Of a stretch of 32,186 nucleotides of DNA, positions 2,977 to 16,601 are shown piece by piece. Position 1 is the stretch's first letter. Each line of letters opens with the position of its first letter. The translations under genes and the position numbers were made by a program. Below the pieces are notes generated by a model that saw nothing but the letters and a program-made list of their open reading frames with translations, did not search any database and was not told the DNA's origin. The DNA is from a virus, in IMG/VR virus record IMGVR_UViG_3300043313_001360, positions 1 through 32,186 of that record; one strand, 5' to 3'.

Positions 2977-3474
2977 TTACTCCTCGATGAGGTGGAAGGC
3001 GTACGTCGGATCGTTCTCGTCGTACAGGGCTTGGAGGTCGTCGTCTGGAATGGTGCCCTCGAAGTTCGCTGCCAGGATGGCGTCCTCGTTGATCACCGTG
3101 ACCGTGCTGGTGCAGGAGGCGAGCAGCTTGCGCTTGGCGAGGTACGCCATCGTGCGCTCCTCGTTGAGGTTCATGCTGCCCTTGCGGGTCTGTCGCTGGA
3201 TGCCGACGATGGTGACCTTCTTGGCCTTGCCAGCCTTGTAGGTCACGAACTCCACCGGGGTCTCCAGCAGCAGCTTGCGATGTTCTCCTTCATCACCGTC
3301 GGGCATGCCGACAGCGGCAAGTACCTCCATGAGCGTGCCTTTGAGGTCGTTCTCATGGTAGGCAGACCGCTCGCGCATGGAGCGGTTCAGCAGATACTCC
3401 TGCACGGGTTGCGTGATGTCAGGCGCAGGCACCCGCTTGCGCCGTCGCACGGTCCGTGCAGGAGTATCAGCCAT
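2977..3474 (-). CDS. Phage protein of unknown function
   Basis: A 165-residue soluble protein I do not recognise. A basic N-terminus (TVRRRKRVPAPDI) precedes a mixed alpha/beta body with LLETPVEFVTYKAGKAKKVTIVGIQRQTRKGSMNLNEERTMAYLAKRKLL. The start is ATG at 3474. TACACT (3487-3482) lies 7 nt before it, with TTGCCC about 18 nt further upstream, so a leaderless promoter is likely. The first 27 codons contain a perfect 15-bp inverted repeat (3393-3407/3454-3468). Confidence 0.7.
   Translation of the reverse strand: MADTPARTVRRRKRVPAPDITQPVQEYLLNRSMRERSAYHENDLKGTLMEVLAAVGMPDGDEGEHRKLLLETPVEFVTYKAGKAKKVTIVGIQRQTRKGSMNLNEERTMAYLAKRKLLASCTSTVTVINEDAILAANFEGTIPDDDLQALYDENDPTYAFHLIEE
3393..3468. repeat. 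Perfect 15-bp inverted repeat inside the start of a gene
   Basis: GATACTCCTGCACGG (3393-3407) is the exact reverse complement of 3454-3468, with a 46-nt spacer. Both arms are coding (residues DTPAR and PVQEYL of the 2977-3474 product) and use codons that are otherwise uncommon here (GAT, ACT, CCT, TAT), so the structure rather than the protein appears to be selected. It would form a strong mRNA stem just after the start codon, or a two-site operator. Confidence 0.75.
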
Positions 3475-13880: not shown

Positions 13881-13893
13881 AAGTATGATACTT
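13881..13893 (+). promoter_or_regulatory. Palindromic -10/operator of the Y-RNA array and Ro operon
   Basis: AAGTATGATACTT is a perfect 13-bp palindrome containing TATGAT (13884-13889), placing a start site near 13896, about 45 nt before the first Y unit. The core AGTATGATACT is identical to the operator candidate at 7065-7075. ACTTATGCGG (13890-13899) recurs exactly at 16581-16590. A degenerate copy (AGTGTGATACT) is at 13688-13698. Confidence 0.5.
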
Positions 13894-13942
13894 ATGCGGA
13901 ACCTCCTTGCTTCTGTGCGAACGTTTCGGTAGCTTGTCACTT

Positions 13943-14015
13943 GCTCCGGGCCGGAGCCAGCGGGTTACCCATCTGAAAACTGGAACCACCCCGCAGGCAC
14001 CCACTCGACCGGGGC
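13943..14015 (+). ncRNA. Y-RNA-like unit 1 (minimal, no tRNA mimic)
   Basis: A 73-nt unit. The terminal helix is 13943-13951 with 14007-14015: 9 positions, including one G-U and one G-A pair. A short GAG/CTC helix (13954-13956/14004-14006) and an inner helix GCGGG/CCCGC (13960-13964/13990-13994) follow. The asymmetric unpaired stretches between helices match the bulged Ro-binding helix of Y RNAs. The apical loop, about 25 nt, has no T- or D-arm signature, so this is a Ro-binding module only. Confidence 0.75.
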
Positions 14016-14034
14016 ATTGACAACTCAAGATCTC

Positions 14035-14165
14035 GCTGAGGGCCGAAGCAGTCTGGTTACCTCTTAGTAAAGGAGTGATTCGGGTTCGAGTCCCGACCGG
14101 GGTGCTTGCACTCCGGTAGCTCAACTGGCAGAGCACTTACTCAGGCCGCATTCCTCGACCTCAGC
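14035..14165 (+). ncRNA. Y-RNA-like unit 2 with full tRNA-like module (YrlA-type)
   Basis: A 131-nt unit. The terminal helix GCTGAGGGC/GACCTCAGC (14035-14043/14157-14165) has a G-A pair at the eighth position. The inner helix is 14048-14055/14142-14149, with one A-C mismatch. The insert is a permuted tRNA. It has a T arm (14080-14096; 5-bp stem, loop TTCGAGT), then an acceptor stem 14097-14104/14109-14116 closed by a CTTG tetraloop, then TA and a D arm GCTC-AACTGGCA-GAGC (14119-14134). The Ro-binding stem takes the place of the anticodon arm. This is the layout described for bacterial YrlA RNAs. Confidence 0.85.
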
Positions 14166-14174
14166 ACACTCTCA

Positions 14175-14276
14175 ACGGTGGGCCGGAGCTATCCGGTTAC
14201 CTACTGGAGGGTCCGCGCTCGGCGCTGTAGGGGTTCAAATCCCCGGTCAATCCCGGAGGCATCACTCGCCCACCGT
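14175..14276 (+). ncRNA. Y-RNA-like unit 3 (T arm only)
   Basis: A 102-nt unit. The perfect 9-bp terminal helix is ACGGTGGGC/GCCCACCGT (14175-14183/14268-14276). GAG/CTC (14186-14188/14265-14267) and TCCGG/CCGGA (14192-14196/14253-14257) follow. The insert has a T arm GGGG-TTCAAAT-CCCC (14230-14244) with a canonical T loop, but the acceptor and D arms are missing, so the tRNA mimic is reduced. An alternative CCTAC/GTAGG pairing (14200-14204/14227-14231) competes with the T stem. Confidence 0.75.
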
Positions 14277-14283
14277 GCAATCT

Positions 14284-14336
14284 GGAGCCAGACAAATCGC
14301 CGGGAGCCTCTTCCCGACGGGAATCTGGACTGGCTC
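14284..14336 (+). other. Structured spacer between Y units 3 and 4
   Basis: GAGCCAG (14284-14290) pairs with CTGGCTC (14330-14336). Inside it, CGGGA-GCCTCT-TCCCG (14301-14316) forms a second hairpin. It lacks the GGGCCG and GGTTAYC motifs, so it is not a seventh standard Y unit. It could be a decayed unit or an independent small RNA fold. Confidence 0.4.
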
Positions 14337-14338
14337 TC

Positions 14339-14457
14339 CCCATGGGCCGACGTGAGTCGGTTATCGATGGTTCGATTCCACCCCCGTGTGTCCGGCCCTC
14401 GGTCCACACGGGAAGCACAGTTGGCTGTGCACCCGGATCACACCCCTCGCCCATGGG
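14339..14457 (+). ncRNA. Y-RNA-like unit 4 with tRNA-like module
   Basis: A 119-nt unit. The perfect terminal helix is CCCATGGGC/GCCCATGGG (14339-14347/14449-14457). The inner helix GTGAGTCGG/CCGGATCAC (14352-14360/14433-14441) has one G-A and one G-U pair. The insert has a T arm with loop TTCGATT (14366-14382, one A-C mismatch in the stem), an 8-bp acceptor stem CCCGTGTG/CACACGGG (14383-14390/14405-14412) with a 14-nt loop, AA, and a D arm GCAC-AGTTGGCT-GTGC (14415-14430) with the conserved GG. Confidence 0.85.
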
Positions 14458-14466
14458 AACACTCTC

Positions 14467-14612
14467 GCTGCGGGCCGACGTCAGTCGGTTACCAGGTACC
14501 GGGTGCTAGCCACCCAGCGGTTCGAAACCGCACGCTGGCCTCGCCTTGGCCAGCACTCTCTCGTCGTTGAACACCATGAGGGAGCTTCCGGTTGGCAACT
14601 CTCGCCCGCAGC
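14467..14612 (+). ncRNA. Y-RNA-like unit 5 with tRNA-like module and long variable arm
   Basis: A 146-nt unit. The perfect terminal helix is GCTGCGGGC/GCCCGCAGC (14467-14475/14604-14612). The inner helix is 9 bp with wobble pairs (14480-14488/14588-14596). A hairpin GGGTG-CTAGC-CACCC (14501-14515) sits where a class II tRNA has its long variable arm. Next come the T arm GCGG-TTCGAAA-CCGC (14517-14531), a 7-bp acceptor stem GCTGGCC/GGCCAGC (14534-14540/14548-14554) and a divergent D-arm position: a 7-bp stem (14556-14562/14578-14584) with a 15-nt loop lacking GG. Confidence 0.8.
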
Positions 14613-14628
14613 ATCACAATCTGGCCCA

Positions 14629-14694
14629 TCTCCGGGCCGGAGGCATCCGGTTACCGCATTCCGTAACCCCGGATGTCACTCACTCGACCGGAGG
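14629..14694 (+). ncRNA. Y-RNA-like unit 6: minimal element overlapping the Ro ribosome-binding site
   Basis: A 66-nt unit without a tRNA mimic. The terminal helix 14629-14637/14686-14694 has one U-G and one G-A pair, the latter as in units 1 and 2. The inner helix is CATCCGG/CCGGATG (14644-14650/14669-14675), extended by TTAC/GTAA. The 3' strand of the terminal helix includes GGAGG (14690-14694), the Shine-Dalgarno of the Ro gene, 8 nt before its ATG. It therefore looks like a cis-acting operator for Ro binding rather than, or as well as, a free Y RNA. Confidence 0.75.
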
Positions 14695-14702
14695 ACCCTG
14701 AC

Positions 14703-16292
14703 ATGCCCAAGCGCAACGACCCCTATTCCGCTGTGCGGAGCCGGAATGTTCCGGTGACCCAGCGCCTCACCCCTGACCAGACCGTCAACTCCGACGGTGG
14801 ATACGTCTGGGCCCTCGACGACTGGGCCCGGATGGACCGCTTCTTGATCCTCGGCTCGGCCGGTGGCACCTACTACATCGGTGAGGGCGACCTCACCAAG
14901 GAGAACGCCGCCGCCGTCGACCGGTGCATCAAGGCCGACTACAAGCGGGCCGTTGATCGGCTCGTCGAGATCTCGGTGGAGGGTCGCAACCCCAAGCAGA
15001 ACCCGTTGCTCTTCGCCTACGCCATGGCGTGCGGTGCCGACGACGTGGAGGCTCGGGTCTACGCCCTCAGCAAGCTGAACGAGATCTGCCGCACCGGCAC
15101 CATGCTCTTCGTGTGGGCTCGCTACGTCGAGCAGTTCCGGGGCTGGGGCCGCTCGCTCCGTACGGCCGTGGCCAAGTGGTACACGGACCGGGATCCCCAC
15201 GACCTGGCGCTCCAGTTGGTCAAGTACCAGCAGCGCGAGGGGTGGTCGCACCGTGACCTCCTGCGGCTCGCCAAGCCCCGCCCCGAGCGTGGCTCGATGA
15301 CCGACCGCAACCTGGCGTGGGCCGTCCGCAAGGGCACCGAGGGCTACGACACGTTGCTCCAGGCCCACGAGGAGATGCAGGAGCCCGGCGTCACGCCGCA
15401 GCGCGTGGCCGAGTTGATCGAGATGTTCCGTGTCCCCTGGGAGGCGGTGCCCTCCGAGATGCTGGCCAAGCCCGAGGTCTGGCACGCCCTCCTCCCTTAC
15501 CTGGGTATGGGCGCGCTCGTCCGCAACCTCGGTCGTTTGACGTCCAACGGCACCATCAAGCCGATGACGGGCGTCGAGGCGGTGGTGACCCAGAAGCTGA
15601 CCAACGAGCAGGCCGTCAAGGGCTCTCGGATCCACCCGTTCAACGTGCTCCTCGGTGCGTCCACGTACGCCGCCGGTCGGGGCGTCAAGGGCTCGCTCAC
15701 CTGGCAGCCGAACGGCAAGGTGCTCCGGGCGCTGGACACCACGTTCCAGATGGCGTTCAAGAACGTCGAGCCCGCCAACAAGCGGACCCTCGTCGCCCTG
15801 GACGTGTCGGGATCGATGACCGGCAGCCGGATCGCCAACAGCCACCTGTCGGCCCGGGAGGGCTCCAGCGCCATGGCCCTGGTCACCCTCGCTACCGAGC
15901 CGCAGACGGCGGTCATGGCGTTCAGCAAGGGGTTCATCCCCCTCGGCCTGCACGCCGGTCAGTCGTTGGCCGACGTCGTCCGGATGACCCATGGTCTGCC
16001 GTTCGACTCGACGGACTGCTCGATGCCCATGCGGTGGGCGTTGACCAAGCAGGTCGAGGTCGACACGTTCATCATCTACACCGACTCGGAGACGAACGTC
16101 GGTGGCCATCCGGCCCAGGTGCTGCGGGAGTACCGCAAGCGCTCGGGGATCAACGCCAAGCTCATCGTCGTGGGCATGACGTCCAACGGGTTCAGCATCG
16201 CTGACCCCAACGACGCCGGGATGCTCGACGTGGTCGGCTTCGACTCGGCGGCTCCGTCGTTGATCGCAGACTTCTCGGCTGGGAGGGTCTGA
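14703..16292 (+). CDS. rsr: Ro60/Rsr-like RNA-binding protein (TROVE + vWA domains)
   Basis: A 529-residue protein, full length for the family. The N-terminal ~355 residues form the TROVE HEAT-repeat ring: MPKRNDPYSAVRSRNVPVTQ..., GGYVWALDDWARMDRFLILGSAGGTYY, then paired helices. The vWA domain follows, with an intact MIDAS metal site: D367-x-S369-x-S371 (DVSGSM), T437 and D461 (YTDSE). Ro proteins bind misfolded RNAs in the ring hole and Y RNAs on its outer rim, and in bacteria can deliver RNA to PNPase. A Ro homologue is known from mycobacteriophage Bxz1. ATG 14703 has GGAGG 8 nt upstream, located inside Y unit 6. A strong terminator follows at 16326. Confidence 0.95.
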   Translation: MPKRNDPYSAVRSRNVPVTQRLTPDQTVNSDGGYVWALDDWARMDRFLILGSAGGTYYIGEGDLTKENAAAVDRCIKADYKRAVDRLVEISVEGRNPKQNPLLFAYAMACGADDVEARVYALSKLNEICRTGTMLFVWARYVEQFRGWGRSLRTAVAKWYTDRDPHDLALQLVKYQQREGWSHRDLLRLAKPRPERGSMTDRNLAWAVRKGTEGYDTLLQAHEEMQEPGVTPQRVAELIEMFRVPWEAVPSEMLAKPEVWHALLPYLGMGALVRNLGRLTSNGTIKPMTGVEAVVTQKLTNEQAVKGSRIHPFNVLLGASTYAAGRGVKGSLTWQPNGKVLRALDTTFQMAFKNVEPANKRTLVALDVSGSMTGSRIANSHLSAREGSSAMALVTLATEPQTAVMAFSKGFIPLGLHAGQSLADVVRMTHGLPFDSTDCSMPMRWALTKQVEVDTFIIYTDSETNVGGHPAQVLREYRKRSGINAKLIVVGMTSNGFSIADPNDAGMLDVVGFDSAAPSLIADFSAGRV

Positions 16293-16325: not shown

Positions 16326-16355
16326 AAGAGGCCCCCGCTACAGCGGGGGCCTCTT
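16326..16355 (+). terminator. Terminator of the Ro operon
   Basis: AAGAGGCCCCCGC (16326-16338) pairs perfectly with GCGGGGGCCTCTT (16343-16355) over the loop TACA, 33 nt after the Ro stop. Confidence 0.8.
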
Positions 16356-16571: not shown

Positions 16572-16601
16572 TTGATAGCAACTTATGCGGTGCGGTATGG
16601 T
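16572..16601 (+). promoter_or_regulatory. Promoter with overlapping dispersed dyad
   Basis: TTGATA (16572-16577) and TATGGT (16596-16601) are spaced 18 nt and precede the secreted-protein gene. The dyad ATAGCAACTTAT (16575-16586) overlaps the -35 box and the spacer, so a protein bound there would block the promoter. Confidence 0.5.

What the first reader, a model, noticed from the sequence alone, without database searches (positions are those of the whole stretch)
13943..14694. Tandem array of six Y-RNA-like noncoding RNAs upstream of a phage Ro gene
Six consecutive units share a fixed-length 22-nt 5' element (GGGCCGRMG, 5-6 variable bases, SGGTTAYC), a CTCG(A/C)C 3' element, and a 9-bp terminal helix whose sequence differs in every unit yet always pairs, i.e. 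strong covariation. The 5' element has the same length and pattern as the Ro-binding strand of vertebrate Y RNA (as I recall it, GGUCCGAAGG...GAGUUAUC). Known bacterial Ro loci usually carry one or two Y RNAs; six in series, in one probable transcript with rsr, looks new to me.
Basis: partly seen in the sequence, partly recalled or inferred. Interest (0 to 1): 0.95.

Follow-up and report, generated by a model that had tools for sequence, protein, structure and literature searches.

The report
Phage Y RNA array controlling Ro
Just before its gene for a Ro60-like RNA-binding ring protein, this phage carries six tandem small RNAs of the Y RNA type, and the last of them overlaps the Ro gene's ribosome-binding site in a way conserved in its relatives, which suggests that Ro protein can switch off its own translation.

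Summary
They lie directly upstream of a clear Ro60/TROVE gene (14703-16292). A covariance model built only from other phages' units finds units 1, 3 and 6 (E 1.5e-7 to 4.5e-5). Rfam matches unit 1 to a nematode sbRNA (Y RNA homologue) family above gathering, and units 2 and 4 weakly to YrlA.

They are bacterial/phage Y RNAs, a known kind. Tandem Y RNAs are common upstream of rsr: two or more in 38 of 82 viral and 38 of 70 bacterial loci at a strict threshold. Arrays of five or six were seen almost only in this phage's own clade, so six is the top of a range, not a new category.

What looks new is beside the last unit. In all seven clade loci the rsr Shine-Dalgarno lies inside that unit's terminal helix. 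A conserved 8-bp hairpin (UCUGGCCC/GGGCCGGA) competes with that helix and puts the strand that masks the Shine-Dalgarno into its loop. Searching viral contigs by this hairpin turned up two further Ro loci. I infer a Ro-autoregulated translational switch (about 0.45), not yet tested.

The parts
13907..13935 (+). sigma-70-like promoter TTGCTT-17-TAGCTT; -10 ends 7 nt before unit 1
   Evidence: the same TTGCNN-17-TANNTT, 5-7 nt before unit 1, in L020-L023; the same element in L338; not found by the stricter consensus scan
13943..14015 (+). Y RNA unit 1, 73 nt, no tRNA-like module
   Evidence: RF01656 40.6 bits, above gathering 38; R1 model 41.8 bits, E 7e-7; two-helix scan 43.5
14035..14165 (+). 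Y RNA unit 2, 131 nt, with permuted tRNA-like module (T arm, closed acceptor-like stem, D arm)
   Evidence: two-helix scan 38.5; YrlA RF02553 34.3 bits, below gathering 69; fold z -2.3
14175..14276 (+). Y RNA unit 3, 102 nt, T-arm-like hairpin only
   Evidence: R1 model 33.2 bits, E 4.5e-5; two-helix scan 40
14339..14457 (+). Y RNA unit 4, 119 nt, permuted tRNA-like module
   Evidence: two-helix scan 44; YrlA 29.4 bits, below gathering; fold z -3.8
14467..14612 (+). Y RNA unit 5, 146 nt, T-arm-like hairpin plus two long hairpins
   Evidence: two-helix scan 46; fold z -5.3
14629..14694 (+). Y RNA unit 6, 66 nt; 3' strand of its terminal helix carries the rsr Shine-Dalgarno
   Evidence: R1 model 45.1 bits, E 1.5e-7; two-helix scan 42.5
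14620..14641 (+). competing hairpin UCUGGCCC-AUCUCC-GGGCCGGA, which takes up the Ro-binding 5' strand of unit 6
   Evidence: present once in each clade locus, always at the last unit; it is the minimum-energy fold of 14614-14705
14690..14694 (+). rsr Shine-Dalgarno GGAGG, 8 nt before the start codon
   Evidence: sequence; inside the terminal helix of the last unit in all clade loci
14703..16292 (+). rsr: Ro60/TROVE-vWA protein, 529 aa
   Evidence: Pfam vWA_Ro60 2.6e-61 and TROVE 9.9e-39; human RO60 2.5e-117, Xenopus Ro 1yvp 1.8e-112, D. radiodurans Rsr 2nvo 5.4e-101; PHROG 850
16327..16354 (+). very stable GC-rich hairpin after rsr, probable transcript end (no T run)
   Evidence: z-score -8.4; position

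Best explanation
One promoter drives a transcript of six Y RNAs followed by the Ro (Rsr) gene. Each unit has the Ro-binding base: a terminal helix, one bulged C, a 7-8 nt internal loop on the 3' side, a second helix and UUAYC. Each unit carries a different loop module: none (units 1, 6), a T arm (3), or a permuted tRNA-like module (2, 4, and less canonically 5). Inferred: the units are cut apart in the unpaired spacers; Ro binds and stabilises them; the modules gate the Ro ring or tether it to different partners, as Deinococcus Y RNA tethers Rsr to PNPase. Also inferred (about 0.45 on its own): unit 6 is a translational operator. Without free Ro its 5' strand sits in the competing hairpin, the strand that masks the Shine-Dalgarno is in that hairpin's loop, and rsr is translated. 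When Ro exceeds the other five units it binds unit 6, locks the Y fold, buries GGAGG and stops its own synthesis. Shown here: anatomy, covariation, conservation, gene context. Not shown: transcription, processing, binding, regulation. The confidence given is for the Y RNA array with Ro; the operator has its own figure.
For: Covariation in 29 non-clade units: 93.7% of cells paired, score 0.915 against 0.267 shuffled; clade units 0.584 against 0.238. These units were picked partly by pairing, so the independent tests matter more: the R1 model without clade units finds units 1, 3 and 6; its 99 hits at E<=0.01 in 629 kb of other loci are all on the rsr strand; RF01656 matches above gathering in the window and twice in L020. 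Promoter conserved in position. Operator: Shine-Dalgarno inside the last unit's terminal helix in window, L020-L023, L338 and L265. The 8-bp hairpin is present once per locus, only at that unit; arms are invariant while the loop varies from 3 to 6 nt. TGGCCC-N3-8-GGGCCGGAG-N8-TTAYC in IMG/VR hits four loci, all at a Ro array, one new; L265 came from the looser hairpin search. Without protein the hairpin state is 5-8 kcal/mol better than the Y state in five clade loci and equal in FuzzBuster.
Against: No expression or binding data. Only three of six units were found by the independent model; long loops are lost. The Shine-Dalgarno overlap is confined to this clade plus FuzzBuster: 0 of 67 bacterial loci and no other viral locus of those scored. 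The hairpin arms do not covary inside the clade, because one arm is fixed by the Ro motif; strong hairpins at the same place also occur in some GC-rich bacterial units without Shine-Dalgarno overlap. In the computed fold GGAGG is partly paired even in the hairpin state, so the ON state is not clearly open.
Confidence: 0.85

Rival explanations
1. The array is made of Y RNAs, but the Shine-Dalgarno overlap and the hairpin of unit 6 have no regulatory role: gene packing put the last Y RNA against rsr, and the hairpin is a processing or folding aid.
For: Most Ro loci have the Shine-Dalgarno 12-60 nt or more after the last unit, so regulation is not a general feature; clade conservation may be one ancestral event; strong hairpins occur in other GC-rich units.
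Against: The hairpin arms are invariant across Ro proteins 52-65% identical to the window's, are absent at the other units of the same arrays, and FuzzBuster has an overlapping Shine-Dalgarno with a different but matching hairpin, CUUCACCC/GGGU(C)GAAG.
Confidence: 0.45
2. The units are remnants of a phage tRNA gene cluster that decayed and kept T- and D-arm fragments.
For: Units 2-5 hold T-loop sequences; ARAGORN calls tRNAs in some related arrays; many related phages have tRNA clusters next to rsr.
Against: ARAGORN finds no tRNA in the window. Units are bounded by the Y-type stem, not by acceptor stems, and two covarying helices are maintained. Modules in units 2 and 4 are circularly permuted as in YrlA.
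Confidence: 0.02
3. The whole leader is a cis-acting mRNA element only (for example an mRNA stability or Ro-recruiting leader), not a set of separate small RNAs.
For: No processing site or internal promoter is demonstrated; unit 6 overlaps the rsr Shine-Dalgarno.
Against: Known Y RNAs act as separate RNAs; the units have diverged loop modules, which a pure mRNA leader would not need; a few bacterial candidate units lie downstream of rsr.
Confidence: 0.1

Closest known systems
Bacterial Y RNAs / YrlA (Rfam RF02553; Chen et al. 2014, Sim and Wolin 2018)
   Same: Next to a Ro60 orthologue; base stem with bulged C; permuted T-acceptor-D tRNA-like module in units 2 and 4; size 66-146 nt against the reported 90-150 nt (PMC8394870).
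   Different: Rfam scores are below YrlA's gathering cut-off (34.3 and 29.4 against 69); up to six units in one leader; two units with no module; last unit overlaps the rsr Shine-Dalgarno.
Nematode sbRNAs (Rfam RF01656) and vertebrate Y RNAs
   Same: Single bulged C, opposite-strand bulge, upper stem, UUAUC-type motif (PMC4726728); unit 1 scores above the RF01656 gathering cut-off.
   Different: 3'-side internal loop is 7-8 nt instead of 3 in vertebrates; no pol III context; tRNA-like loops; no match to the vertebrate Y RNA family.
Ro-like RNA-binding proteins of actinobacteriophages (e.g. FuzzBuster gp78, Forza gp165, Alice gp220)
   Same: Same protein family (42-46% identity) with tandem Y-type units upstream.
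   Different: Those Y RNAs are not annotated in these records, some carry a tRNA label; of these only FuzzBuster shows the Shine-Dalgarno overlap.
Autoregulated ribosomal-protein leaders (mRNA site that mimics the protein's RNA target)
   Same: Proposed logic: excess protein binds a copy of its RNA target over the ribosome-binding site.
   Different: The target is a Y RNA and the protein Ro60; I know of no report of this (from memory; the searches found none).

Membership tests
Y RNA (Ro-binding RNA) | 5' and 3' ends pair in a lower stem with a single bulged C | tested here: met
   all six units; G.A in place of one pair in three units
Y RNA (Ro-binding RNA) | bulge or internal loop opposite the bulged C (3 nt in vertebrates) | tested here: met
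   present in all units but 7-8 nt long
Y RNA (Ro-binding RNA) | upper stem followed by UUAUC-type motif | tested here: met
   9-bp second helix then UUAYC in all six; strict UUAUC only in unit 4
Y RNA (Ro-binding RNA) | encoded with, and bound by, a Ro60 orthologue | tested here: inconclusive
   rsr directly downstream with Pfam and PDB-sequence support; binding not tested
Nematode sbRNA family RF01656 | covariance model score at or above gathering | tested here: inconclusive
   unit 1 met (40.6 against 38); units 3 and 5 below (24.5, 28.1); others no match
YrlA (RF02553) | covariance model score at or above gathering | tested here: not met
   34.3 and 29.4 bits against 69; so not filed as RF02553 members, though unit 2 has its module order
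YrlA (RF02553) | tRNA-like module modified by tRNA enzymes and binding PNPase | not testable with these tools
   needs experiment
Ro60/TROVE protein | TROVE (HEAT-repeat ring) and vWA domain | tested here: met
   PF05731 and PF25045 above cut-off; aligns end to end with 1yvp and 2nvo

The most novel reading that the evidence does not exclude
The last Y RNA of the array is a two-state translational operator: a conserved hairpin keeps the rsr Shine-Dalgarno free, and binding of Ro to the Y fold masks it, so that Ro made in excess of the other five Y RNAs shuts off its own synthesis and is titrated against its RNA partners.
Probability: 0.45. Interest if true: 0.78.

Novelty: new variant of a known kind. 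Interest (0 to 1): 0.62.

Why it matters
Why phages carry Ro60 is open. The locus shows that a phage can supply a whole set of Y RNAs with different loop modules together with the protein, a natural panel for asking what each module recruits. If the operator is real, it would be, as far as I know, the first case of Ro60 expression set by the protein's own Y RNA, and a simple rule for keeping Ro and Y RNAs in balance. Tandem Y RNAs in phage records are unannotated, and some carry a tRNA label, so the survey also points to annotation errors.

Tried and rejected
Decayed tRNA cluster: rejected on the Y-stem covariation. Chance repeats: rejected by shuffles and by the strand bias. 'Six in a row is new': weakened by surveys of viral and bacterial Ro loci. 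Shine-Dalgarno overlap as a general Ro feature: rejected, 0 of 67 bacterial loci. The R1 model with filters off gave many weak nonsense matches and lower scores for the long-loop units, so only the default search is used. Two pattern scans with a wrong spacer length were repeated correctly. The key papers (Chen 2014, Sim and Wolin 2018, Sim et al. 2020) are not in the library, so what they say about phages is from memory or from papers citing them. The istR (RF01400) and Six3os1 matches elsewhere in the window are below gathering and taken as chance.

Full report
What is there. The record is a 32,186-base virus contig with a Baseplate_J protein among its minus-strand genes. At 14703-16292 lies a complete Ro60 protein: Pfam TROVE and vWA_Ro60, PHROG 850, and end-to-end sequence matches to the solved human, Xenopus and Deinococcus Ro proteins, E 5.4e-101 or better. 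The segment GWSHRDLLRL matches GWSHKDLLRL of the human and Xenopus chains.

The six units. The outer five base pairs form in all 30 cases although they differ from unit to unit; among all 720 ways of matching 5' and 3' strands only the true one does so. Inside the bulge and internal loop there is a second 9-bp helix (GCCAGCGGG/CCCGCAGGC, GUGAGUCGG/CCGGAUCAC, GUCAGUCGG/CCGGUUGGC and so on), again different in every unit. This two-helix layout with one bulged C and UUAYC is the anatomy reviewed for Y RNAs and nematode sbRNAs (PMC4726728). Rfam scores unit 1 above gathering for the nematode sbRNA family and units 2 and 4 weakly for YrlA.

Independent test. I built a covariance model from 29 units of other phages, leaving out the window and its close relatives. 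It finds units 6, 1 and 3 of the window at E 1.5e-7, 7e-7 and 4.5e-5, and 99 matches at E<=0.01 in 78 other Ro loci, all on the rsr strand. Covariation scores far exceed shuffled and slid controls. The units were chosen partly by pairing, which inflates these scores; the model search and the strand bias are the cleaner evidence.

How common. 352 phage records in GenBank encode a Ro-like protein. Reading their upstream regions shows tandem units in FuzzBuster, Sparky, Cashline, BearBQ, Forza, Cece, Trina, the Bixzunavirus phages and an M. abscessus prophage. With a strict threshold, two or more units lie upstream of rsr in 38 of 82 viral and 38 of 70 bacterial loci; a control region inside the gene gives 6 units in 154 loci. 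Five or six units appear in the window, L020, L022, L023 and L066 only. So long arrays are a clade trait at the top of a continuous range.

Transcript. A promoter-like TTGCNN-17-TANNTT lies 5-7 nt before unit 1 in the window and L020-L023, and the same element is found in L338, which would start the transcript at unit 1. It is weaker than the consensus used by the scanning tool, which does not list it. A very stable hairpin follows rsr.

The last unit. GGAGG (14690-14694), 8 nt before the rsr start codon, is part of the 3' strand of unit 6's terminal helix. The same holds in L020, L021, L022 and L023, whose Ro proteins are 52-65% identical to the window's, and, with AAAGG, in FuzzBuster. It does not hold in the other loci scored. 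Just upstream, UCUGGCCC can pair with GGGCCGGA of the Ro-binding strand; the strand that masks the Shine-Dalgarno (CUCC or CUUC) is then in the hairpin loop. The hairpin occurs once per locus, at the last unit only; its arms are invariant, its loop is not. FuzzBuster has a different hairpin in the same place that fits its own motif. Calculated without protein, the hairpin state is favoured by 5-8 kcal/mol in the clade and equal in FuzzBuster.

A forward test. Searching IMG/VR with the hairpin plus the Y element returned L021-L023 and one new contig, L338, which proved to have five Y units and a Ro gene with the Shine-Dalgarno in the last helix.

Mechanism. Shown: anatomy, covariation, conservation and gene order. 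Inferred from known Ro biology: Ro binds the units; modules gate or tether, as in the Rsr-Y RNA-PNPase machine (PMC8394870, PMC8058203). Inferred here: unit 6 is a Ro-responsive operator. The weak points are that GGAGG is partly paired in the hairpin state too, that the hairpin arms cannot covary freely, and that all clade loci may share one origin.

Verdict. Known kind (phage/bacterial Y RNAs with Ro), long array, and a probable new regulatory variant at the last unit.

Noticed in passing
L022:3365-3491: The last Y unit of this relative encloses an ordinary, non-permuted tRNA-like fold (ARAGORN tRNA-Tyr 3390-3463; Rfam tRNA 40.7 bits) inside the Y stem; L023 and L338 look similar by eye.
   Followed up: partly
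L008:2247-2325; L020:3013-3087; L021:3102-3176: ARAGORN calls tRNA-Thr on parts of Y-type units; the L008 (prophiGD43A-5) call is also the GenBank annotation. Some phage 'tRNA genes' next to rsr are probably Y RNAs.
   Followed up: partly
L008:2320-2990: This M. abscessus prophage has about four to five Y-like units with a variant core (AACAGGA.. instead of GGGCCGA..), missed by the motif scan.
   Followed up: no
window 14277-14338: Spacer between units 3 and 4 folds into a long stable hairpin (AGCCAG/CTGGCT, z -2.1) that is not a Y unit.
   Followed up: no
window 13889-13899 and 16580-16590: TACTTATGCGG recurs (one mismatch) upstream of the array and after rsr; not more than chance overall, but both lie in intergenic DNA.
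   Followed up: partly
L265 and L338: Two Ro loci retrieved by the unit 6 hairpin pattern rather than by protein similarity; L265 is held only as a 1-kb stretch.
   Followed up: partly
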